DNA from: Spirogloea muscicola
Taxonomy: Eukaryota; Streptophyta; Zygnematophyceae; Spirogloeales; Spirogloeaceae
DNA length: 62,535 nt
Assembly (NCBI GenBank): GCA_009602725.1
Contig: WELB01000105.1
Coordinates: 429,596-492,130 of the forward strand
Direction of reading: 5' to 3'
A program made the position numbers and the translations under genes. Shown piece after piece: positions 1 through 56,620 of the stretch; position 1 is the stretch's first letter, and each line of letters begins with the position of its first letter. The notes below the pieces were generated by a model, which saw nothing but the letters and a program-made list of their open reading frames with translations, made no database searches and had not been told where the DNA came from.

Positions 1-1070
1 AGTAGGAAGTCAGATGAGCTGAGGGGAGGAAGAGCAACCCCGCTGCGCAAACCAGAGGCTGCTGCAAGGGCGCGACCAGCCCGGCGATGCAAAGCAATCG
101 CCTGGGACCGCTGTAGGGACATAGACAAGCGCATACGGTAGCAGGACACAAGACCCAAAGGCACCGAGCCACCGGGAAGGGCTGCACCCCGTTCCCGGCG
201 CCGCTGGTCAGCTTGAGAGGCCAGCAGCGAAAGTAACGAGGACCACTGACCCCCGTAACACCCGTGGATGTCCATGGCCAGGGGGTAAAAGGTATCACCC
301 GCCGGGTGGTCCGCGGGGAGAAGTCGCAACTCGAGAGTTGGGGTTCAGGATTTAGGTTTGTGGACTTGGCAACCCTACAAGCTGCAGCTTCTGCCACTCG
401 ACCCCCCCCCCGAAGCTACGCCGCCGCCGCCGCCGCCGCCGCCGCCGTCGCCGCCGTCGCGCGGCGCGTGGGAGCTCATCCGCGCTGCAGGCGGGCGAGC
501 GAGCGCCGCAATGGCGTAGCGGCCTGCGGCGTCTTGGCACTCCTGTGCTGGAGCGCACTGACGGGCACAGCAGAAGCCGCGGCAGGCTGCGGGCACCCCG
601 GCGGGGCATGGCGGCGGCGGCGGCGGGGTGCGGGGCTCGCCGAGGCCTTTGGCTCGTCGCTTGCGGCGGGGGGTGGCCTTCGCCGCCAGCGCAGGCACGC
701 GGACAAACCCCCCCCTCCGCAGACGCGGTTTTTTGAGTGCCTGTTGCCGCAAACAGGATTGAGGTCAAGGGGAATCTAACAGCCAGTCCCAGGAACGGCA
801 TTCGCGAGCGCTTACATCCACTGGCGGCTACTGCTGATGGCCGCTGCGGCGGGTGCAGGCAGTTGGCAGCGGCAGACTCGTGCCGGCGGCGGCAGCGGCT
901 CTCTCGAGGCCGCGGGAGCGCCCTGCCGGACACGCGGGGCCTGCGGGGTCCCGCTCCTTCTGCGCGGCGAACGAAGGTAGTCTCCGAAGCTTACTTCTTG
1001 CACCCCGAGTTCAAGTGAGGAGGCTGGCCAACGGCGGTGTCTGGCTGCCCTCCTCGGTGGGCTGTCACTG
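1..1070. other. GC-rich 5' region of the first gene, with CCG repeat
   Basis: No confident gene was read in the first 800 bases. A (CCG)n tract lies at about 418-466, with further CCG/GGC-rich DNA to 700; the long open frames here are by-products of this composition. An ATG at 838 opens an Ala/Gly/Arg-rich stretch that runs to a possible donor at about 977. It could be a leader exon of the armadillo gene downstream, but its phase does not fit the next acceptor I considered, so it was not joined. Confidence 0.4.
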
Positions 1071-2044
1071 ATGGGTTTCGGCACTTCACCGTGCCACGCA
1101 GCCCGAGATGCGGCCGACGAGGCGGAGCACCTGCGCCGCAGCCGCTGGATGCTCAAGGCGCTCGCGGCCGTCACGCTCGGCGTCGTCGGCCTCCACACGG
1201 CCGGCAACATGGGTCAGTTCCTCGAGTGCCACAAGTGCCGGTTTGCAGGCTATCAGCCTTACCTCACCTGCAAGCGGTGGACGGCTGTGGACGGCTGTAC
1301 TCGAGCTGAAGCTCTTCTGCTGCCCATTGCTGAAGTCTGGCTCAGTGGGCCGCAGGTGACAGCATGGTGAGGCAGTCAGTCGCGCTCCTGCGGTCCAAGG
1401 ACCCCTTCCTACAACGAACTGGTGCCGCCCGACTGCATCGCATGGCCTCTGATGGTACGACTCAGCACTGGGTCAAGCTACTTGCATGCACATGCTCTAA
1501 ATATGATGTAGTTGATGTGCTTACTGCGCCCTGACTGGGTGCGGACTGCGCAGACAACAGAAAGCAGCGCATCATTGAAGCTGGCGGCATCACTGGCCTG
1601 CTCTTGCTGCTGGAGGCGTCAAAGGACGAGGCCACTGTGCGCGAGGCTTCGAGGGCCATCGCACGGCTCGCTGAGCACGGTGAAAGCACAAAGGATGCCC
1701 ACTTTAGTGCATACATGCTTCTTTTGCAGCTTGCTACGCGTAAATGTGGGTGTCACCAACAACATGAGCAGCCTTATGAATACATGTGTTTCTTGATCCT
1801 GAAGTTCAACTTTGCACTCGTTGACCCCCCATGACCTACAGAGAGCGCTGCAAGTGCGATATCGGCTGGCGGGGGCACAGAGCTAGTGCGGCGCTTGGCA
1901 GAGGATTCGGGGGATGGCGAGACACGAACTTGCGCCACAGCCGCCCTGGGCCGCCTGACGGACTTGCCCGAGCAGGCCCAGGCGCGGATAGACTGCAATA
2001 GCGAGCTGCTGGACGACGGGGTGGCACCTCTTGCGAGGCACTGA
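1071..2044 (+). CDS. Armadillo (ARM) repeat protein
   Basis: Four exons join in phase: 1071-1212, 1356-1454, 1554-1679 and 1842-2044, all with GT-AG borders. The product is about 190 residues. It starts with a hydrophobic helix (LKALAAVTLGVVGLH), then carries helical armadillo-type units, such as NRKQRIIEAGGITGLLLLLE followed by EASRAIARLAEHG, and a last unit with GGGTELVRRLAE and TAALGRLTDLPEQAQ. ARM repeats form a superhelix that binds other proteins. The N-terminal helix could be a membrane anchor or part of an organelle signal. The ATG at 1071 is the best in-frame start seen, but upstream exons are possible, because the promoter-like GC-rich region begins further upstream. The partner and pathway cannot be told from sequence. 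The fold assignment is fairly sure, the start is not. Confidence 0.7.
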
Positions 2045-2273
2045 TTGGCCTGCGCAGACAGGTCTGCCGATACCGTGAAGGACTGGCAGCCTGTCGGTGA
2101 TCAGGTCACGTAGCCCAGGCATTTCCGGATGCTCTTGGGTCCACCGAGCAATGACTGTTGTGGTCGTGTAAGCAGCTTAGGTTGACAAGTGAAGAGTCTA
2201 GGGGTTTGTGATAAGGGCTGGAAGTCTTATCAGCCTCTCAATTACGTGGAGGGCAACATCCCGTTGCTGGGAC

Positions 2274-3697
2274 TTAGAGTCCGTCAGCACCCCCAGGCAG
2301 CTGGGGAGGTTCTCGCAGTGGCAAGCATGCTTGGACAGCAGCCGTAAATGCAGCCATCTTCGCGGGGTCCTTGGCAATCTTGTCCGGGCCTGTGACGCCG
2401 CTGGAGACGTCAACACCGTCAGGGTGCAGGAGCGAAACAGCTTCTGCCACATTGCCGGGCTCGAGGCCGCCCGCCAGCAACCAGCCGTGGCGGCTCAGAC
2501 CCTGCGGGGCTGCCAGGTTGCTCCAGTCAAAGCGCTCGCCACTGCAAGTACACCAGTCCAGTTGTTGATACATTACCATTAAGAATGATATGTCCGCTTG
2601 GTGGCAGCCAGCACCGCTGGCAGTTGAGGAGAGGTCTAACTGCAGGTATGGTGTAATGGGGAACTTGGGCATTGATGACCATCGAGGACGAACCTTCCGC
2701 CCTGCATGCCATCGACCAGAATCCAGTCGACCAGGCCAGCCACACGGCCGCTGTGGGCTGGGCTGGCGCCACTTGTCGGCTGCGGTGGCAGCGGCGGCGG
2801 CGGCGGCGTGTGGAGCACGCCTTGGCTGTCGGCTTGCATCACGTACACAAGCCTCAGGTCTGGCGGTAGATGCGGCAACGCTGCCCTGGCTCCATCGCCG
2901 TGCAGCTGCAGGTGCGGCATTGGCGATAACCTTTGCAATCAGCAAGCAAATGCGAGGAGCTCCAAGGGGCGCGAGGTTGGCGCTTGCACCTCGCGCAGCA
3001 GCGCCTTCGCCATGTACCTGGGCATACGACACGCCGGCCGCCTCGCTGGCATGTGCGATCGCAGCGGCGTCCTCGTCAACAAAGACGCCGACCGTCTCTG
3101 CGCCCAGCGACCGCACAGCTCGGGAGATCTCGGCGGCCCTTGCCAGCGATACGGAGCGCTGCGGCGGCACAGAGCAAGCTCACGAGCTGAGCTGCCTCCA
3201 CTGCGACCGTCATTCATGACAATGGCTGGCGGCATCGGTGGGACGGCGGCGGCGGCAAGATTTTGCTGGGCACCCACCGGCACTTGGCTCACCTTGGACT
3301 TGGGCCAGAGTATCATGCCCACGAGCGACGCGCCGACTGCCACTGCCGCAGCGCCGTCCTCTAGGCTCGCCACGCCGCAGATCTTCACGACGACCCCACC
3401 GTCGCCGCCTGGTGGGTCATCCACCGCCGCCGCCGCTGCGCTCGCCCCTGCCGTGCTGGTGCCCACGCCGGCCCGCACCTTATGGGCGCACCACGTTCGG
3501 CCGAGAGCGCGGGAGTCCCAGGAGGAAGCATGGCGGAGCGTCGCTGGCTGAGGTGACTTCTGCTGCGCGGTGCAGCCGCGTCCGCGGCACGATATTACGA
3601 TTGCACTGGCCTCTGCGTCGGCAACGGAAGTGGCAGCAGTGAAGTCGGGGATGCCTGCCAAGCTGGGCGGCCGCAGTAGCGCAGCTGCACAGCACAT
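2274..3697 (-). CDS. PAI1: Phosphoribosylanthranilate isomerase, plastid type
   Basis: Catalyses the isomerisation of N-(5-phosphoribosyl)anthranilate to CdRP, the third step of tryptophan synthesis (EC 5.3.1.24). Four exons (3697-3293, 3158-3018, 2905-2694, 2541-2274) join perfectly in phase into 341 residues. Family signatures appear in order: VKICGVASLEDG with the catalytic Cys, LWPKSK joined to RSVSLARAAEIS across intron 1, VGVFVDED, LHGDGARAALP, WILVDGMQGG joined to SGERFDW across a phase-2 intron, GGLEPGNV, and DVSSGVTGPDKIAKD near the C-terminus with the catalytic Asp. Roughly the first 110 residues precede the barrel and are rich in Ala, Ser and Arg, as expected for a plastid transit peptide; in plants this pathway is plastidial. 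Length beyond the leader matches the usual TIM-barrel size. An extra intron inside the leader is possible. Confidence 0.93.
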
Positions 3698-4522
3698 GTC
3701 GCATAAGTCTCACGGGGCCAGTGTGCCTGCCGCAATGGCTGCAGGGCACTCGTCGCCAGAACCTTTGCGAAGGTCAGATTGAGCAGGAGCTTCGTTGATG
3801 CGTGCTACACTGTCTGATGGTGATTGGTGAGGGTCAATTTACTTTGTTATAACCCGCTTTCTTCGGGCGTGCCCGCTACACCATCAAGGCTCCTTCACTT
3901 CGCGCCACTAAGACTTCAGACGTCAGATGTTCAGTTATTGTTACTCAGCATCTCTGTTCTCCTCGAGTCTAGGTCCCAGGCAGACCTACTCATAGAGAAG
4001 CTTGACTGAGCTCCGCAGATCATGACTCTTTCAACTTCACAGTCTGCACAGCTTTCAGCATCTGCAAGAATCACGGCTGGTATATTATGAAGAAACCAAA
4101 GACAGCTTGAAGACGAGGAGGCAAAGGGACAGTCAGACTGGTTAGAAGCTGGAGCAGCGCGAAGCCAAAATTCATAATCAACTTGTCCCACCAAATGTCT
4201 TTCTTGCTCCGAAATTGCAGCACTTTCTACAGCGGAACCTTTCTGCTGCACTTATCTTGTTCATCGAACTATGAATCGAAGGGGAGGACTGAAGCTGAGT
4301 AGAGGCAATGCAGTATGCTACTCCAACGCCTCTCCTCTGCTTTGCCCCACAAAAGCCTGCCATACTCCTTGTCAATTTCCATTGTGCTCGGCTTCGGGTG
4401 AGAGCAGAAATGTCACCTGCCTCGACGTTCCAGGAAGCACAAACTATCGCCTTTCACAAGCACACTTGGCAAAGTTCTGTTATCAGTAAGTCCCCCAACC
4501 CACATCTTGTGGCGAACCTCCT
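3698..4522. other. Intergenic region between PAI and the LRR gene
   Basis: About 825 bases separating the 5' end of the isomerase gene from the 3' end of the LRR gene, both on the minus strand. Composition drops to moderate GC. No open frame with recognisable protein features, repeat or RNA gene was seen; it should hold the isomerase promoter and the LRR 3' UTR. Confidence 0.5.
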
Positions 4523-17355: not shown

Positions 17356-18140
17356 GTCCATTGATTTGGGCTGGCCTCTCACAGCCACCAGTCAATTTGG
17401 AAGCGCTATTTCTGCAGGCTAGACCGTGCGCATTTGAACTACTGACAGACCTTTTACATCACTGCGGGTCAGAATTAGGTCCTGATCTTCTGCAAGGCTG
17501 ACACGAGCTGCCAACGAGCTCAAGGTCACCCGGTTCCCGTTGACCACGCCTAACAGAGCCCGGAATCCTGGGCCGGCAACACTGCCGGCCCAGAACAGAT
17601 CGACACGGTAGAGAAGTAGTGGGAATGAGTGTGTTTTAAGAGATGGAGGGCCATGTGTGGCCAAGTCCAAAGTGGGGTACGAGGGCTGCAAAAGGGCAGC
17701 CCACAAAAGAAAGCCAAGGTCCGTATGGGTTTCTAGAGAGGGGAGCCCCACGAGAAAGCAGGGAGGCGTCAGCCTGCCGATTCTAGCCGATGCTCTTGTC
17801 AAGCTAGCACGCTAGGCGAGAGAAAGAGAAGTAGGCTCTTCCAAAGGGGGCGACGAGTGTGAAAAGCCAGCCGGAAAAGAAAGGACAAGGTCCGATGGGG
17901 CTGAAAGGGCTGAAACACACAATAAGCAAGTCTCGCAAAGGACAGTCACTTAGTAACCTCTGGTTAGCAGCCGCAAGTCAGAAAGACTAGCTGGAGAGCA
18001 GTTTCCTTGACGAAAGCCAGAGGCTGCAGCTAGAGCATGGCCAATATGCAGATGCAAGGCGTGGGCCAAGGTCCGTCGGAGGGACGCGGTGCATAGGTGC
18101 ATGCGAAGCACCTGCGTTAACGAGCCAGCGGCGTTGAAGT
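17356..18140 (-). mobile_element. Fragments of non-LTR retrotransposon 3' ends
   Basis: On the minus strand, 18140-17950 decodes as a decayed C-terminus of the reverse transcriptase family: NAAGSLTQVLRMHL, then a basic helical stretch, then SDLRLLTRGY and a TAA stop at 17950-17952. About 80 bases downstream lie the 3'-UTR marks CTTGTCC and GGCTGGCTTTTCACAC (17900-17850). A plus-strand hairpin copy (GGCTGGCCTCTCACAGCC, 17371-17388) lies in opposite orientation. A further 11-bp perfect palindrome, CTGGGCCGGCA facing TGCCGGCCCAG, lies near 17570-17595. Confidence 0.7.
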
Positions 18141-18200
18141 CGGCCTGCTCGGCCCGCAGGACACAACTCGGCGCACAGGCCCAGTCAATAGGTCGAGCCA

Positions 18201-18509
18201 GTGGTACCTGGAGGCTTTGTGCACATCGATGGCCAAGAAAATGGATTCGTCCCCTTCTATATGGTCCGCGTACTTGGCCTCATTGCAACGAGCAGGGCAT
18301 TCGCTGCTGCATGCCCAGCCTTCGAAGCAGAGAGCCCCATAACAAAGTGGTCAATTACGTCTGGGTTGACCTACGTCAGCAGTTATGCGCGGAAGGGAAA
18401 GCTTGCAGCCGTGCAGCTGAACGAAGATAGTGAGCTCATCCAACGGGGGCTAGGGCTGTGTGCCAGCCCGGCGCAAGAAGGCGAGCGGTGTGCAAGCAAT
18501 GAAGTGTAG
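18201..18509 (+). CDS. Orphan open frame, possibly a gene or element remnant
   Basis: A 102-codon frame with an ATG at 18201, reading like a folded protein (GGFVHIDGQENGFVPFYMVR, LIATSRAFAAACPAFEAES, SGLTYVSSYARKGKLAAVQL). It lies between two retroelement fragments and no family was recognised. It may be an exon of a captured gene or a piece of a related element's frame. Confidence 0.25.
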   Translation: MVPGGFVHIDGQENGFVPFYMVRVLGLIATSRAFAAACPAFEAESPITKWSITSGLTYVSSYARKGKLAAVQLNEDSELIQRGLGLCASPAQEGERCASNEV

Positions 18510-18604
18510 GCAAAACGTAAGCCCATACTCTGTTCGAACTAAAGCTAGCAAAAGCGGGGCTGCATAGAACGAAATCCGGAAAGCGAGAAAGCGTGACTCT
18601 TCCA

Positions 18605-19145
18605 CTAGAGGGCCTGCGGAATGCTGGAGTGGCCCAAGCTGCCCCCCCGACTTCGACGACGCGCATCAACCAGCCGGGCCAGATGCTGGATCAGGGAGAA
18701 CCATTTTACGCCGTAGCCTCCGTAGATATCCATGGCACACGGATAAAGATGGTCCCCTCGGGGATGGTCCTGGTAGTGCCGCTCCTTCTTGCGCTCCGCG
18801 CTGGACGTGGCCCAGCCAGACACGGTTGACGTGGGTGCGCCAGCCTCGTACGCGTCGATCAGTACCACGTCCAGGAGCAGAAGAGGCCCACCGCCCCGGA
18901 GGGTGGCGACCACGTCCAGACGCCGCACGTATGGCTTGCCGCGCCTTGAGGAGATTGGCATGATGACGGACACCTCCATCGCCGGATGATACCCCGCCTC
19001 TCGCACAATTCCAAGCGTAGTGTCCCTGAGTAAGTCGTGGGAGGCGATGCGCTCCACCCCCTCAACACATCTCAGCATATGAGCAGCTAGATCGAGCTTG
19101 TCATCGGCAATGTGGCCACACTCGCACTGGCGGATGCCAGCAAGG
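18605..19145 (-). pseudogene. Truncated copy of the retrotransposon endonuclease domain
   Basis: Bases 18613-19145 closely match 52849-53380 of the full-length element, with few substitutions. The minus-strand frame keeps the restriction-like endonuclease core (GKPYVRRLDVVATLRGGG, LLLDVVLIDAYEAG, HYQDHPRGDHLYPCAMDIY). Both ends are cut: it starts within the zinc-knuckle region and stops after SSIPQAL, lacking about the last 60 residues including the terminal LTRGY. It cannot encode a working enzyme. Confidence 0.9.
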
Positions 19146-19164
19146 ACAAGGACAAGGTAAGAAT

Positions 19165-19345
19165 GGGAACAAAGAGAGAAGGCGCGCGGGGCGCATGAAA
19201 TGAAATGGAGGCCAATTCAAGCCGATACATTGTTCAGGCAGAGTCTAGGGCAAAGTAAACAGGGCTACAAAATACGGAGACCTAAACTAAGGTGCCTAAT
19301 AAGGTGACATCAGTACCCACGGGTGAGCAAACAAAGAACACGCAG
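19165..19345 (-). mobile_element. Solo 3'-UTR copy of the full-length retrotransposon
   Basis: Matches 52530-52690, including AATACGGAGACCTAA and the LTRGY-coding end (GTACCCACGGGTGAGC). It is cut just upstream of that peptide. It lies beside, but out of order with, the endonuclease fragment at 18.6-19.1 kb, so it is a separate insertion. Confidence 0.85.
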
Positions 19346-52165: not shown

Positions 52166-52527
52166 GCTCGCCCATAGAGAAGAGAGGCTGGCAAAGCCAG
52201 CCCAATAAGAATGAACAATGTCCAAAGCCAAAGAAAGAGGTGCCGATAAAGGACTACACTACAAACAATCAAAACACAAGACGATGCAGAGGGAAGCTTA
52301 GTACCCGCGAGTGAGCAACATCAGGTCGGAGTAGCTCGCTGCAGGGAAAGAGGCACTCCGCCGAGATCCAGAGCCGGCGGCCGTTGCACGGCCTGCTCGG
52401 CGTAGGCAAGGGAGCGTTGAAACGATACCGCCAGGCGCATACGGAAGACTTGGGCGAGCGAACCGGCGGCGTTGAAGCCGGGCATCGCTGGCAGACCCGG
52501 CCGCCGGTCAATGGCCCGACGGGCAAG
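52166..52527 (-). mobile_element. Related 5'-truncated retroelement copy
   Basis: Minus strand reads VFRMRLAVSFQRSLAYAEQA, then after a frame change SYSDLMLLTRGY and stop (about 52340-52300), then a 3' UTR shared with 30495-30620. Its upstream edge abuts the 3' end of the intact element, so one inserted next to or into the other. Confidence 0.75.
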
Positions 52528-52666
52528 CCGCTGGAGAGAAGGCGCGCGGGGCGCATGAATTGAAAGGGAGGCCAATTCAAGCCAATACATTGTTCAGGCA
52601 GAGTCGAGTGCAGACTAAACAATGCTACATAATACGGAGACCTAATCTAAGGTACCTAAGATGACA

Positions 52667-55600
52667 TTAGTACCCACGGGTGAGCACAAACAAATCTGAC
52701 AAGCTAACTTGGGGAGCTGGAGCGCCGCCACGAAAGCCGGAGGCCTGACTTAGAGCACGCCCTGCACGTTGATGAAGATGAAGAGCCAATGCTTGCGAGC
52801 GCTGCAAACTAAGCGAGAGCCGCATTCTATAATATGCAACTAAGGCCTGCGGAATGCTGGAGTGGCCCAAGCTGCCCCCCCGACTTCGACGACGCGCATC
52901 AACCAGCCGGGCCAGATGCTGGATCAGGGAGGACCATTTCACGCCGTAGCCTCCATAGATATCCATGGCACACGGGTAAAGATGGTCCCCTCGAGGATGA
53001 TCATGGTAGTGCCGCTCCTTCTTGCGCTCCGCGCTGGACGTGGCCCAGCCAGACACGGTTGACGTTGGTGCGCCAGCCTTGTATGCGTCGATCAGTACCA
53101 CGTCCAAGAGCAGACGAGGCCCACCGCCCCGCGGGGTAGCGACCACGTCCAGACGCCGCACGTATGGCTTGCCGCGCCTTGAGGAGATTGGCATGATCCC
53201 AGACACCTCCATCGCCGGATGATATCCCGCCTCTCGCACAATGCCAAACATGGTATCCCTTAGTAGGTCGTGGGAGGCAATGCGCTCACCCCCCTCAACA
53301 CACCTCAGCATGTGCGAAGCTAAGGCGAGCTTGTCGTCGGCAATGTGGCCACACTCGCACTGGCGGATGCCAGCCAAGCAAGGGGGGGGGAGGCCAAGGT
53401 GGTGGTGGAGCGCCGTGCGGAAAAGGTTGTCAGAAAGCCGAAGGGACTCGTAGATCGGCAGAGCGTTTAGCCACTCCGACGCGCCCGGGGAGCCGATTGA
53501 AAGGAGCCGGGTAAGGCCACGTCTATCGTCCTTGAGCAGTCCCTTCAAGTCGGAGGCGGCCTGCACGTCCGCAGCGTGTGTGTAGTGAGCCTGCGCTTTC
53601 CTATCGGAACAGCGTGCCCATGCCGCAAAATCTGCATGACCCTCGGCAAGTGTTGGTAGGGAGCACGAGAGGTCATGCAGTGCTGCGGTTAGGGAAAGCT
53701 GGAAGGGCCTGGTCCCTGTTGCAACACCCGCTATAGCGGGTGCTAAAACAGCCTGGCCCCTCAGGATGAAGCGACTGGAGATGGTGGAGGCCACTTGGGC
53801 CCAGCAACCCAGGTGAGCTGCTTGGGACAGGCGAGCCAGTGGACGGCACCCAAGGCCGCCTATGCTGGTAGGAAGGGTACACTGGAGGATGGCAGCCGGC
53901 GTGGCGGACAAATTGGGATGGTCCACCAGGCCGTGAAGAGCCTGTTGGAGTCTGGAGTCCACGGTAGAGTAGATGGCGTTTAGTGCCGTGGTGGGGGGTA
54001 CAGTCCGCAACAGGTAAGTGGGACGCTGGGCCACACACCGGGTGAGGATGGCCACCGCAAGCTGCGCATCCTGTAAGGAGGGGAGGGCCGGGAGGGTCTG
54101 GAGATGGTTCTCAAGGGTGGACTCCACAACTTGCTCCACATGCGCAGCAGCCCCCAACGGGACTCCAAGCACCACCATGCCGAGTGGTGGGGTCTGGCAC
54201 CCAGCCGGCAGCTTGATGGAGGGAGGGATGCCGGCTGGAGACCAGGCTGAACACTTCTCAGGCCGGATGTGGAGGCCGAGGATGTGAAGCTCGCGCTCCA
54301 ACGTGCTGTAAGCGCTGGTGACTTCAGTTGGGGGTCCCGCAAGGGTGGTGTCGTCGGCGTAGCTTGGGATCAGGACAGCAGGGTGGGCCTCCGCCGTATT
54401 ACGCAGCGCACGTAGGTGTGCCAATGCAAAGAGGAACCCGCCCAAAGGGTCTCCCTGTCGGGTGCCTGTGCTGGATTGCAAGACCACCTGTGACGTGCCC
54501 GCTCCCCAGAGCAGGCGGGAGGGTGCTCCGTAGGAGCACCGGAAGAAAGGGATGAGGGAGGGAAAATGCGTGCGCAGCTCCTCGGCGATGACACCTCTGT
54601 CAACGCTGTTGAATGCATTCTTCACGTCCACTGACAGGGCCATCCAATCGGGATTGCAATCCAGGGCAACACGTAGACCGTGAACCACTGTCTCCGCGCC
54701 CGCAGACAGCCCTGCGCCGAACTGGTGGGGGGAGAAGTGGAGCTGCGCCGCCTCTTTGTGCTGCTGGAATAGGGTCTTGGAAATCAGTCGGGTAAGGACC
54801 TCGCCCATCGCAATTGGTCGGACGCCTCCGGTGGGCTTGGAGAGAGCGAGCAGGGTGCTGCTGGTGAGTGCTGCCCGGGCCTTGGGTGGAAGGAGGCCGC
54901 GCGCCACCGCTTGGCACACTTTGTGCAGCAGACTGAAGTCACCTGCCTCATCGTCGAGCCAGAGCTCTCGAAGGTGTTCAAAGAGCATGCCCGAGGGCCC
55001 TCCAGCCGCTGCTTTCCGGCTCTGCACCAACGCTGTCCGCAGAGCTGCTGGGTTGAGGTCCACCATGGTTGGGGGCTGAAACTCCTCGAGCCAGGGGGGT
55101 AGGGGGCTTGGGGCAGGGGGGTGGAGGGTCCTGAGAGCAGCAAGGGTTTCTGCATCGTGAGGTGCTGGGGTGGCTGGGTCCAGAGCTTGGGCAGCACGGG
55201 ACAGGTCCCCTGCGCGGCCAAAACGAATGGCCCGGCGGACAGCTGAAGCCTCTGAGGTGGCTGGGGTGGGCCGATTCGCCTGGGACACCTGGACAGCTGC
55301 GCGATGCTCCTCCAGGAGCTGCTCCCATGCACCGCCCTCAAAGCGCTGAATCCTGGCAAGCATCACCGCGCGTTGGCTTGGACCACTTGGAAGGGGCCCC
55401 AGGACCAGGCGAGGGAGGAGCTGCCAGACAGTCCACGCGGCCTCGTCGAAGCTGTTCCGAGCCATCCGAGTGAGTATGGGCCGCGAGGCTCGCTGGATGT
55501 GTGGCCGTGCCCAGTGGGGAATGTGCCGCAAGGTGGGCAGACTGGGTTCCAGCATGACCGCATCAAGGTCCAGGAGCCTTGCCCAACGCCACTGAGCCGG

Positions 55601-56479
55601 CGAGGGAGCTGGGAGAAGGGGTGCCGGGGCTGGGGTGCCGGGCTGCCGTCGTCGGGTAGAGGCCTCAGCACGGGCTTGGGCCTGCACCGAGGCGCGATCG
55701 GCCTTCTTGGAGCAGTGGTACTCGTGGATGCGAACGCCCCGCCGGCTAGGCCAGGGCTTCTGGCAGTACCGGCAGATGTGGGGGAGAGCTGTAGCAGCAG
55801 GGCGGGTGGATGGAGCTGCTGCAGCTGCAGGGATGGCGGGAGTAGGCAGGAGAGGCGGGAGGGCTGAAGCCATTGGGGGCTGGGGCCGACGACCCCTCCT
55901 GCTGGTACTGGAACCACTGGTGCTTGAAGGAGCCACATCGGCAGTAGCGGCAAACGAAGCGGCAACGGCAGCAACGACGGCAGCAGCAGCAGGAGGCGTC
56001 GGAATGGTGGACATGGGAGGGGCCGGTGGACGAGCAGGGGCCGCCAAGAGTGGGGTAGCTGTGGGGGCACCATCAGGGGGCACGTCTTCGTCCATGGGCG
56101 CACTTGCAGGGGGCTCATGCGAGGATGTGCAGGGCGGGATGCACCCCTCGCTCGTACTCGGGCAGTCTCCGCCCCGGGAAGTGGCGGCAGTGGAACCAAT
56201 TGTGCTTGAAGGAGCCACATCGGCGATAGCGGCAGCAGAAGCGGCAACGGTAGCAACAGCGGCAGCGGCAGTTGGAGTCGCCGGAATGGTGGACATGGGA
56301 GGGGCAGTTGGAGGAGCAGGGTCCGCCGAGAGTGGGGTAGCTGTCGGGGCACCGTCAGGGGGCACGTCTTCGTCCATGGGCCCACTTGCAGGGGGCACCT
56401 GCGAGGATGTGCAGGGCGGGATGCACACCTCGCTCGTACTCGGGCCGTCTCCGCCCCGCGAAGTGGCGGCAGTGGCCAC
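52667..56479 (-). CDS. Reverse transcriptase / restriction-like endonuclease polyprotein
   Basis: Open from 56545 with no in-frame ATG before 56377; the frame given begins at a GTG (1270 codons), and the first ATG would give 1236 residues. Domains: a Pro/Ala/Ser-rich N-terminus made of two imperfect copies of about 97 residues; a zinc finger CRYCQKPWPSRRGVRIHEYH(C) at about 235-256; the reverse transcriptase core GGVRPIAMGEVLTRLISK, ALSVDVKNAFNSVDR (about 610), TGTRQGDPLGGFLFALA and SYADDTTLAG (about 706) with both catalytic Asp; a Cys/His knuckle CECGHIADDKLALASHMLRC (about 1037); then RRLDVVATPRGGG and LLLDVVLIDAY (about 1105-1130), matching the PD-(D/E)xK-type nuclease of R2-like early-branching elements. 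It ends in SDLFVLTRGY. No stops or frameshifts interrupt it, so it may be functional or recently so. Confidence 0.92.
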   Translation of the reverse strand: MATAATSRGGDGPSTSEVCIPPCTSSQVPPASGPMDEDVPPDGAPTATPLSADPAPPTAPPMSTIPATPTAAAAVATVAASAAAIADVAPSSTIGSTAATSRGGDCPSTSEGCIPPCTSSHEPPASAPMDEDVPPDGAPTATPLLAAPARPPAPPMSTIPTPPAAAAVVAAVAASFAATADVAPSSTSGSSTSRRGRRPQPPMASALPPLLPTPAIPAAAAAPSTRPAATALPHICRYCQKPWPSRRGVRIHEYHCSKKADRASVQAQARAEASTRRRQPGTPAPAPLLPAPSPAQWRWARLLDLDAVMLEPSLPTLRHIPHWARPHIQRASRPILTRMARNSFDEAAWTVWQLLPRLVLGPLPSGPSQRAVMLARIQRFEGGAWEQLLEEHRAAVQVSQANRPTPATSEASAVRRAIRFGRAGDLSRAAQALDPATPAPHDAETLAALRTLHPPAPSPLPPWLEEFQPPTMVDLNPAALRTALVQSRKAAAGGPSGMLFEHLRELWLDDEAGDFSLLHKVCQAVARGLLPPKARAALTSSTLLALSKPTGGVRPIAMGEVLTRLISKTLFQQHKEAAQLHFSPHQFGAGLSAGAETVVHGLRVALDCNPDWMALSVDVKNAFNSVDRGVIAEELRTHFPSLIPFFRCSYGAPSRLLWGAGTSQVVLQSSTGTRQGDPLGGFLFALAHLRALRNTAEAHPAVLIPSYADDTTLAGPPTEVTSAYSTLERELHILGLHIRPEKCSAWSPAGIPPSIKLPAGCQTPPLGMVVLGVPLGAAAHVEQVVESTLENHLQTLPALPSLQDAQLAVAILTRCVAQRPTYLLRTVPPTTALNAIYSTVDSRLQQALHGLVDHPNLSATPAAILQCTLPTSIGGLGCRPLARLSQAAHLGCWAQVASTISSRFILRGQAVLAPAIAGVATGTRPFQLSLTAALHDLSCSLPTLAEGHADFAAWARCSDRKAQAHYTHAADVQAASDLKGLLKDDRRGLTRLLSIGSPGASEWLNALPIYESLRLSDNLFRTALHHHLGLPPPCLAGIRQCECGHIADDKLALASHMLRCVEGGERIASHDLLRDTMFGIVREAGYHPAMEVSGIMPISSRRGKPYVRRLDVVATPRGGGPRLLLDVVLIDAYKAGAPTSTVSGWATSSAERKKERHYHDHPRGDHLYPCAMDIYGGYGVKWSSLIQHLARLVDARRRSRGGSLGHSSIPQALVAYYRMRLSLSLQRSQALALHLHQRAGRALSQASGFRGGAPAPQVSLSDLFVLTRGY
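55900..56479 (-). repeat. Tandem duplication in the retrotransposon N-terminal coding region
   Basis: Two successive units of about 290 bases encode near-identical peptides: PMDEDVPPDGAPTATPL and ADVAPSST occur once in each. The duplication keeps the reading frame. Confidence 0.85.
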
Positions 56480-56620
56480 GGCTGGAGGAGATCCAGCCAG
56501 CGGCTGCCGAAAGCCCCGTGTACGACCATCGCCAGGGCCGCAAATTCATCACCAACCGAGTGATCGACCACACGGGCCCTCCATCAATTTATACACACTC
56601 ATTTCCTCGAAGAAGAAGTG

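What the first reader, a model, noticed from the sequence alone, without database searches (positions are those of the whole stretch)
52528..56620. An intact algal non-LTR retrotransposon with a C-terminal restriction-like endonuclease and no conventional start codon
The frame is uninterrupted for about 1270 codons and all reverse transcriptase and nuclease signature residues look intact. In this class (R2-like), the endonuclease is usually sequence-specific and translation can start without an AUG; here the frame opens 34 codons before its first ATG. The N-terminus combines one zinc finger with a duplicated disordered region. An active, possibly site-specific element in a green alga would be of interest.
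Basis: partly seen in the sequence, partly recalled or inferred. Interest (0 to 1): 0.75.

Follow-up and report, generated by a model that had tools for sequence, protein, structure and literature searches.

The report
Truncated R2-like retrotransposon, green lineage
The open frame is a recent copy of a jumping element that copies itself through RNA and carries an R2-like cutting enzyme, but it has lost its front end, so the "missing start codon" is a truncation; longer copies start with an ordinary ATG, and the shortened copies that were mapped tend to sit in runs of C and T.

Summary
Window 56480-52534 (minus strand) holds 3947 bp with a 1270-codon open frame: one N-terminal C2HC finger, a reverse transcriptase (RVT_1, 8.5e-15), a CCHC knuckle and a C-terminal PD-(D/E)XK nuclease. 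A predicted model of that nuclease matches R2 nucleases best (the top seven PDB entries are all R2, Z 8.5-10.6; next 5.9).

Two parts of the interpretation fail: the copy is not intact, and the element does not lack a start codon. The full-length element is 4440 bp, with a 44-nt leader, an ATG at +45 and a 1420-codon ORF; the ATG is kept in 13 of 13 5' regions examined (6 of this family, 7 of relatives). The window copy begins at element position 515, so the ATG and 157 codons are gone. It differs from the C45 copy by 4 substitutions and two in-frame indels, so the family moved recently.

Insertion is not at one locus. In 23 mapped truncated copies the 14 nt before the insertion are 83% pyrimidine (background 50%), with short target duplications; copies at full length show this weakly. 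The likely mechanism is target-primed reverse transcription at pyrimidine tracts. Two related families share the genome. The RLE clade could not be tested.

The parts
52534..56480 (-). 5'-truncated copy (3947 bp) of the family-1 RLE non-LTR retrotransposon; equals positions 515-4440 of the 4440-bp full-length element
   Evidence: Homology boundaries against other copies and against the longest copy
52667..56479 (-). 1270-codon open frame plus stop (codons 158-1420 of the full-length ORF, with 15-nt and 6-nt in-frame insertions relative to the C45 copy)
55904..56467 (-). two tandem 282-bp units (94 codons each) in the Pro/Ala-rich N-terminal region; part of this region is absent from copies L003-L005
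55712..55774 (-). N-terminal C2HC zinc finger (CRYCQKPWPSRRGVRIHEYHC)
   Evidence: C, C, H, C invariant in 6 of 6 rows of A1; no Pfam match in family 1
54239..54838 (-). reverse transcriptase domain (RVT_1, aa 570-769 of the stop-to-stop frame): VRPI, VDV, QGDP, YADD motifs
   Evidence: motifs read by eye
53300..53359 (-). CCHC knuckle C-x-C-x12-H-x3-C
   Evidence: invariant in 6 of 6 rows of A2
52670..53287 (-). restriction-like endonuclease domain (RRLD-x14-D, order alpha-beta-beta-beta-alpha-beta) and C-terminal tail ending SDLFVLTRGY; start approximate
52534..52666 (-). 3' UTR (133 nt) ending in the pyrimidine run GCCTTCTCTC; the equivalent stretch of the C45 copy folds better than all 200 shuffles (z -2.66)
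56481..56484 (.). target-site duplication CAGC, 5' side
   Evidence: sequence; empty-site comparison
52530..52533 (.). target-site duplication CAGC, 3' side
   Evidence: sequence; empty-site comparison
52301..52533 (-). 3' part of an older, frameshifted family-3-like element that the copy landed in
56481..56574 (-). 5' part of the same interrupted family-3-like fragment
   Evidence: joined flanks read through as ...HGAFGSRWLDLLQRLARRAIDRR...

Best explanation
This is a recent, 5'-truncated copy of an R2-like (restriction-like-endonuclease) non-LTR retrotransposon in a green-lineage genome. The full-length element is 4440 bp and encodes one 1420-residue protein from an ordinary ATG: disordered N-terminus, C2HC finger, reverse transcriptase, CCHC knuckle, endonuclease. 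Shown: domain order, truncation, recent movement, short target duplications, and a pyrimidine-tract bias at the insertion sites of truncated copies. Inferred: the endonuclease nicks the purine strand of a C/T-rich tract; the exposed 3' end primes reverse transcription of the element RNA from its 3' end, helped by pairing of the RNA's terminal CUUCUCUC with the purine strand; early termination gives 5'-truncated copies like this one. Not shown: expression, activity, or which RLE clade it belongs to.
For: RT profile: R2 chains score best (2e-10, 42.6 bits); LINE-1 ORF2 chains are weaker (0.0028, 18.9 bits; chain 8c8j, named only RNA-directed DNA polymerase, 0.0015, 19.9 bits). Endonuclease model: the top 7 entries by VIA-align are all R2 (Z 8.5-10.6, rmsd 2.4-2.6, 129-143 residues), next entry Z 5.9; Foldseek ranks R2 at 1, 2 and 5. 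No APE domain: the only Pfam match of the full-length ORF at E <= 10 is RVT_1. Truncation: shared 5' end and ATG upstream in longer copies. Recency: 4 substitutions in 3947 bp against the C45 copy. Empty site: flanks joined with one CAGC removed match a family-3 protein across the junction (tblastn 8e-24); an earlier run with the 3' edge one base off aligned across the junction to another fragment. Target: 23 of 37 fetched copies had a usable 5' flank; mean 82.6% C/T over 14 nt; background (both strands of window 1-52000) 50.0%, z 10.6, 0 of 20000 draws as high. The 13 flanks left after dropping by hand 10 that lie in recurring repeats give 83%; adding four further truncated copies, the window copy included, gives 81% for 27. 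Duplications: mean matching length 6.5 against 4.0 (sd 0.33) with flanks re-paired among the 23 copies, 0 of 1000 as high.
Against: The endonuclease model is of moderate confidence (mean pLDDT 60.9, pTM 0.58); no Foldseek match reaches E 0.001 (best 3.6e-3); the whole-protein model is poor (pLDDT 40.7); a sequence profile of the nuclease alone finds no R2 chain at E <= 10. The pyrimidine bias has exceptions: window copy 9/14, L007 6/14, and the six copies at or near the full 5' end that were counted 7-11/14 (one of them, L071, is a relative, and the 5' end of L064 is uncertain). 14 of 37 fetched copies had no usable 5' flank and were left out (12 run past the fetched piece, 2 have under 30 nt). 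3 of the 23 have no match longer than 3 nt between their flanks. Pairing of the RNA tail with the target is an inference from sequence only.
Confidence: 0.85

Rival explanations
1. An intact element that starts translation without AUG.
For: The frame is open upstream of the first ATG within the copy.
Against: The window copy's homology ends at 56480 while longer copies continue up to 514 bp to a shared 5' end; ATG at +45 kept in 13 of 13 5' regions examined; an in-frame TAA lies between the 5' end and the ATG in the C12 copy.
Confidence: 0.03
2. A strictly site-specific element (rDNA, U2 or spliced-leader target) whose dispersed copies are exceptions.
For: Several flanks carry a similar recurring sequence, a T-rich run before GGGC (L019, L025, L028, L040, L045, L049, L051), and 3 of 23 sites follow on the family's own 3' end (L023, L044, L047).
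Against: Other flanks have nothing obvious in common but C/T richness; the shared flank is itself like the 3' UTR of related families, so it looks like an abundant pyrimidine-rich landing place rather than a unique locus. No U2 or rRNA match in the 7 loci scanned.
Confidence: 0.07
3. An APE-type LINE (L1, Zepp-like) or a Dualen element whose C-terminal domain only looks like an RLE.
For: L1/Zepp and Dualen elements are reported in green algae (passages of PMC8226300).
Against: No APE domain in the full-length ORF at E <= 10; nuclease fold matches R2 above the rest; RT profile closer to R2 than to LINE-1.
Confidence: 0.04

Closest known systems
R2 non-LTR retrotransposons (animals; PDB 9nl2, 9nl3, 9dou, 8gh6)
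   Same: N-terminal zinc finger, RT, CCHC knuckle and C-terminal PD-(D/E)XK nuclease in one ORF (R2 layout recalled); nuclease fold match Z 8.5-10.6; RT profile match 2e-10
   Different: Not at one site; dispersed and often 5'-truncated; RRLD/RRVD where R2 has (K/R)PD (R2 motif recalled); knuckle C-x-C-x12-H-x3-C, spacing different from the R2 consensus (recalled); no HDV-like ribozyme found in the loci scanned
HERO and other weakly specific or microsatellite-targeting RLE elements (PMC4640811, passages)
   Same: RLE element with loose or simple-sequence target preference
   Different: Clade not tested; here the preference is for pyrimidine-rich sequence in general
Utopia / NeSL clade (PMC4640811, passages)
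   Same: One protein with N-terminal finger(s), central RT, C-terminal finger and RLE
   Different: No U2 snRNA match in the loci scanned; no protease or RNase H domain by Pfam
Dualen and Zepp/L1 LINEs of green algae (PMC8226300, passages)
   Same: Green-algal LINEs; for Zepp, insertion into existing copies with frequent 5' truncation, giving arrays of 3' ends
   Different: Those carry an APE endonuclease (Dualen both kinds, PMC4640811 passage); none detected here

Membership tests
RLE-encoding non-LTR retrotransposons (broad group: R2, NeSL, R4, HERO, CRE) | Reverse transcriptase of non-LTR type | tested here: met
   RVT_1 8.5e-15; best PDB relatives by profile are R2 proteins
RLE-encoding non-LTR retrotransposons (broad group: R2, NeSL, R4, HERO, CRE) | C-terminal restriction-like endonuclease after a CCHC knuckle | tested here: met
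   (fold of a model of moderate confidence; not found by sequence profile)
RLE-encoding non-LTR retrotransposons (broad group: R2, NeSL, R4, HERO, CRE) | Copies with a fixed 3' end, variable 5' truncation and target duplications, as target-primed insertion leaves | tested here: met
   the enzymology itself is not testable here
R2 clade | Insertion at the R2 site of 28S rDNA | tested here: not met
   3' flanks of the 37 fetched copies have no common sequence; the window copy lies in another LINE
R2 clade | RT phylogeny within R2 | not testable with these tools
   No reference RT set for the RLE clades on hand; only R2 and LINE-1 chains turned up in the PDB
R2 clade | HDV-like ribozyme at the 5' end (recalled as an R2 feature) | tested here: inconclusive
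   No Rfam ribozyme match at E <= 0.5 in 7 loci; divergent ones could be missed
NeSL / Utopia | Spliced-leader or U2 snRNA target | tested here: inconclusive
   No U2 match in the 7 loci scanned; not all copies scanned; spliced leader not tested
Dualen | Both APE and RLE endonucleases | tested here: not met
   Only RVT_1 at E <= 10 in the full-length ORF
L1 / Zepp (APE clade) | N-terminal APE endonuclease | tested here: not met
HERO | RT phylogeny within HERO | not testable with these tools
   No reference sequences on hand

The most novel reading that the evidence does not exclude
A lineage of RLE retrotransposons in the green lineage, at least three families deep in one genome, that has traded R2-style single-site targeting for recognition of polypyrimidine tracts by pairing the pyrimidine-rich 3' end of its own RNA with the nicked purine strand. 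Because its own 3' end is such a tract, each insertion makes a new landing site, so tail-to-head chains build up.
Probability: 0.3. Interest if true: 0.6.

Novelty: new member of a known kind. Interest (0 to 1): 0.38.

Why it matters
RLE elements are known mostly as site-specific parasites (PMC4640811, passages), and R2 is being looked at as a gene-insertion tool (abstract starts of PMC13188248 and PMC12203849). A recently active R2-like element with a relaxed, simple-sequence target would show how site specificity is lost and which part of the protein or RNA sets it. For annotation, it explains at least some of the short GGGCTGGC...CAGCC repeats of this window as 3' ends of related elements.

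Tried and rejected
Rejected: initiation without AUG; APE or Dualen membership; a single shared target locus. HDV-like ribozyme: three Rfam matches in 7 loci, none a ribozyme, all below gathering score. Scans of viral contigs with the protein profile and with the RT profile gave 90 and 95 pattern matches but no relatives. The sequence profile of the nuclease alone found no R2 chain; only the fold comparison did. AlphaFold of the 1043-residue piece was poor (pLDDT 40.7), so the nuclease was folded alone. Genome searches with APE (PF03372, 10 matches from 27 candidates) and RVT_1 (150 scored of 985 candidates) did not place the clade; what the RVT_1 matches are was not checked. Paper searches showed no description of this family in their listings; this covers only the held open-access library. 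I read passages of two papers (PMC4640811; PMC8226300) and of the rest saw listings with abstract starts only. No tree was built.

Rows dropped and limits: of 37 fetched 3' junctions, 12 whose 5' end lies outside the fetched piece and 2 with under 30 nt of 5' flank were left out of the flank and duplication tests; 10 flanks in recurring repeats were dropped by hand for the 13-site check. The 40 near-identical 3' ends are a lower bound (40 scored of 2677 candidates). In one search the value printed for L004 (8/14) was taken inside the element by mistake; the true flank gives 12/14. C118 (L060) reads N upstream of the element, so it does not help to fix the 5' end. For family 3, 20 pieces were fetched and 19 gave a match; their 5' flanks were not fetched, so no target claim is made for families 2 and 3.
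Full report
What is there. The minus-strand frame 56545..52667 is open for 1292 codons. RVT_1 matches residues 570-769 at 8.5e-15. One C2HC finger lies N-terminal to the RT, and a CCHC knuckle followed by R-R-L-D-x14-D lies near the C-terminus (read by eye, coordinates). The finger is kept in 6 of 6 rows of alignment A1 and the knuckle and both aspartates in 6 of 6 rows of A2, one of which is a fragment. The N-terminal region holds two tandem 282-bp units.

It is truncated. The search of the window's own genome (153 Mb, 471 contigs) gave 43 protein matches. The C45 copy is identical at the protein level (100% rounded) from query residue 21 on but has a different upstream sequence. At DNA level the window copy's homology begins at 56480 in the five copies that reach this point (L002-L005, L008). 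Those copies go on matching each other upstream: four over the whole 160 nt shown, L004 over 46 nt. A search with the 5' part of the longest copy shows matches that begin at nearly the same point (query positions 77-81). Reading them gives a 5' end shared by C45, C52 and two C12 copies with unlike flanks; C408 is less clear and C118 is cut by N. The element is 4440 bp with an ATG at +45 and a 1420-codon ORF. The string CTCATGGCCGCGCC is present in 13 of 13 5' regions held: 6 of this family, 6 of a group 73-74% alike there, and one of a 68% relative. The window copy starts at element position 515. Its first 157 codons and the start codon are gone, and the open codons upstream of 56479 are flank.

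It moved recently. Against the C45 copy the window copy differs by 4 substitutions plus a 15-nt and a 6-nt in-frame insertion in 3947 bp. At least 40 near-identical 3' ends exist (97-100%). At least two copies, C45 and C12, have an uninterrupted ORF from the ATG to the stop.

Where it landed. The window copy lies inside an older family-3-like element. Joining the flanks and removing one CAGC restores a continuous reading ...HGAFGSRWLDLLQRLARRAIDRR... that matches family 3 across the junction (tblastn 8e-24 together with a second, frameshifted piece). An earlier run with the 3' edge one base off already aligned across the junction to another fragment (76.6% over 282 columns).

Target preference. 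I fetched 37 further 3' junctions. In the 23 with a usable 5' flank, the 14 nt before the insertion are 82.6% C/T; 13 of 23 have 12 or more C/T, against 1.2% of background windows; background mean 50.0%, z 10.6. The share falls with distance (0.82, 0.71, 0.67, 0.65, 0.60 in successive 10-nt bins, n 23). Thirteen flanks outside recurring repeats give 83%. Matching ends of the two flanks are longer than when flanks are re-paired among copies (6.5 against 4.0, 0 of 1000). Four further truncated copies score 9 (window), 12 (L004), 14 (L006) and 6 (L007) of 14; with them the mean is 81% for 27 copies. Against this, six copies at or near the full 5' end score 7-11/14. So the bias is shown for truncated copies and is weak, if present, for full-length ones; the 5' junction of the latter may also be less well defined.

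What the nuclease is. Folded alone, the C-terminal 257 residues give the order alpha-beta-beta-beta-alpha-beta (pLDDT 60.9, pTM 0.58). Foldseek ranks R2 chains 1, 2 and 5 (best E 3.6e-3, probability 0.99; no match reaches 0.001). The second look gives seven R2 entries at Z 8.5-10.6 and then a drop to 5.9. A sequence profile of this domain finds no R2 chain. The RT profile finds R2 at 2e-10 and LINE-1 ORF2 at 0.0028. No APE domain is found in the full-length ORF. This makes it an RLE element in architecture; the clade inside that group stays open.

Relatives in the same genome. Family 2 (58% identity to the window protein in A1) and family 3 (52%; 150 of 150 scored nuclease-domain candidates match, of 4823) have the same layout. 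Family 3 has two N-terminal fingers by eye, with weak Pfam support. The 3' UTRs of families 2 and 3 carry a GGCTGG...CAGCC stem of the kind that recurs 18 times in the window, with up to 3 mismatches, where 0.5 is expected. All three families end in a pyrimidine-rich run. In 3 of 23 family-1 sites the 5' flank carries the family's own 3' end (L023, L044, L047), so tail-to-head chains form.

Host. An LHCII fragment of this genome matches chlorophyll a/b-binding proteins (270 PDB sequences at E <= 1e-20; one of the best is 8htu_U, 6.3e-102). That fits a green-lineage host; the species is not identified, and alga against land plant was not tested.

How it most likely works. Shown: architecture, truncation, recent movement, short duplications and the pyrimidine bias of truncated copies. 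Inferred from the known mechanism of R2 (recalled): nicking of one strand, priming of reverse transcription by the nicked end, and loss of the 5' part when synthesis stops early. The further idea that the RNA's CUUCUCUC end pairs with the nicked purine strand rests only on the likeness of the element's end to its targets.

Noticed in passing
window 8175-57023, 18 places: GGGCTGGC-loop-CAGCC stem repeat, 18 matches (up to 3 mismatches) where 0.5 are expected; some coincide with 3'-UTR remnants of family-2 and family-3 elements.
   Followed up: partly
window 17953-19299: A family-1 fragment (90% identical protein) follows closely on another family-1 3' UTR in the same orientation (tail-to-head), near a family-3-like C-terminal fragment.
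   Followed up: no
window 3-311: Family-2 C-terminal fragment, 97% identical to L013, near the window's edge.
   Followed up: no
L065-L070, 5' ends: A dispersed group shares the 5' 220 bp at 73-74% and in all six read is preceded by a GC-rich run ending GGCGGCGGTCCTTT; the body of L065 reads mostly N.
   Followed up: no
L016:4879-5350: A family-2 element sits inside the nuclease-coding part of a family-3-like element: nested insertion.
   Followed up: partly
window 62535: The window's right end is the end of contig C105.
   Followed up: no
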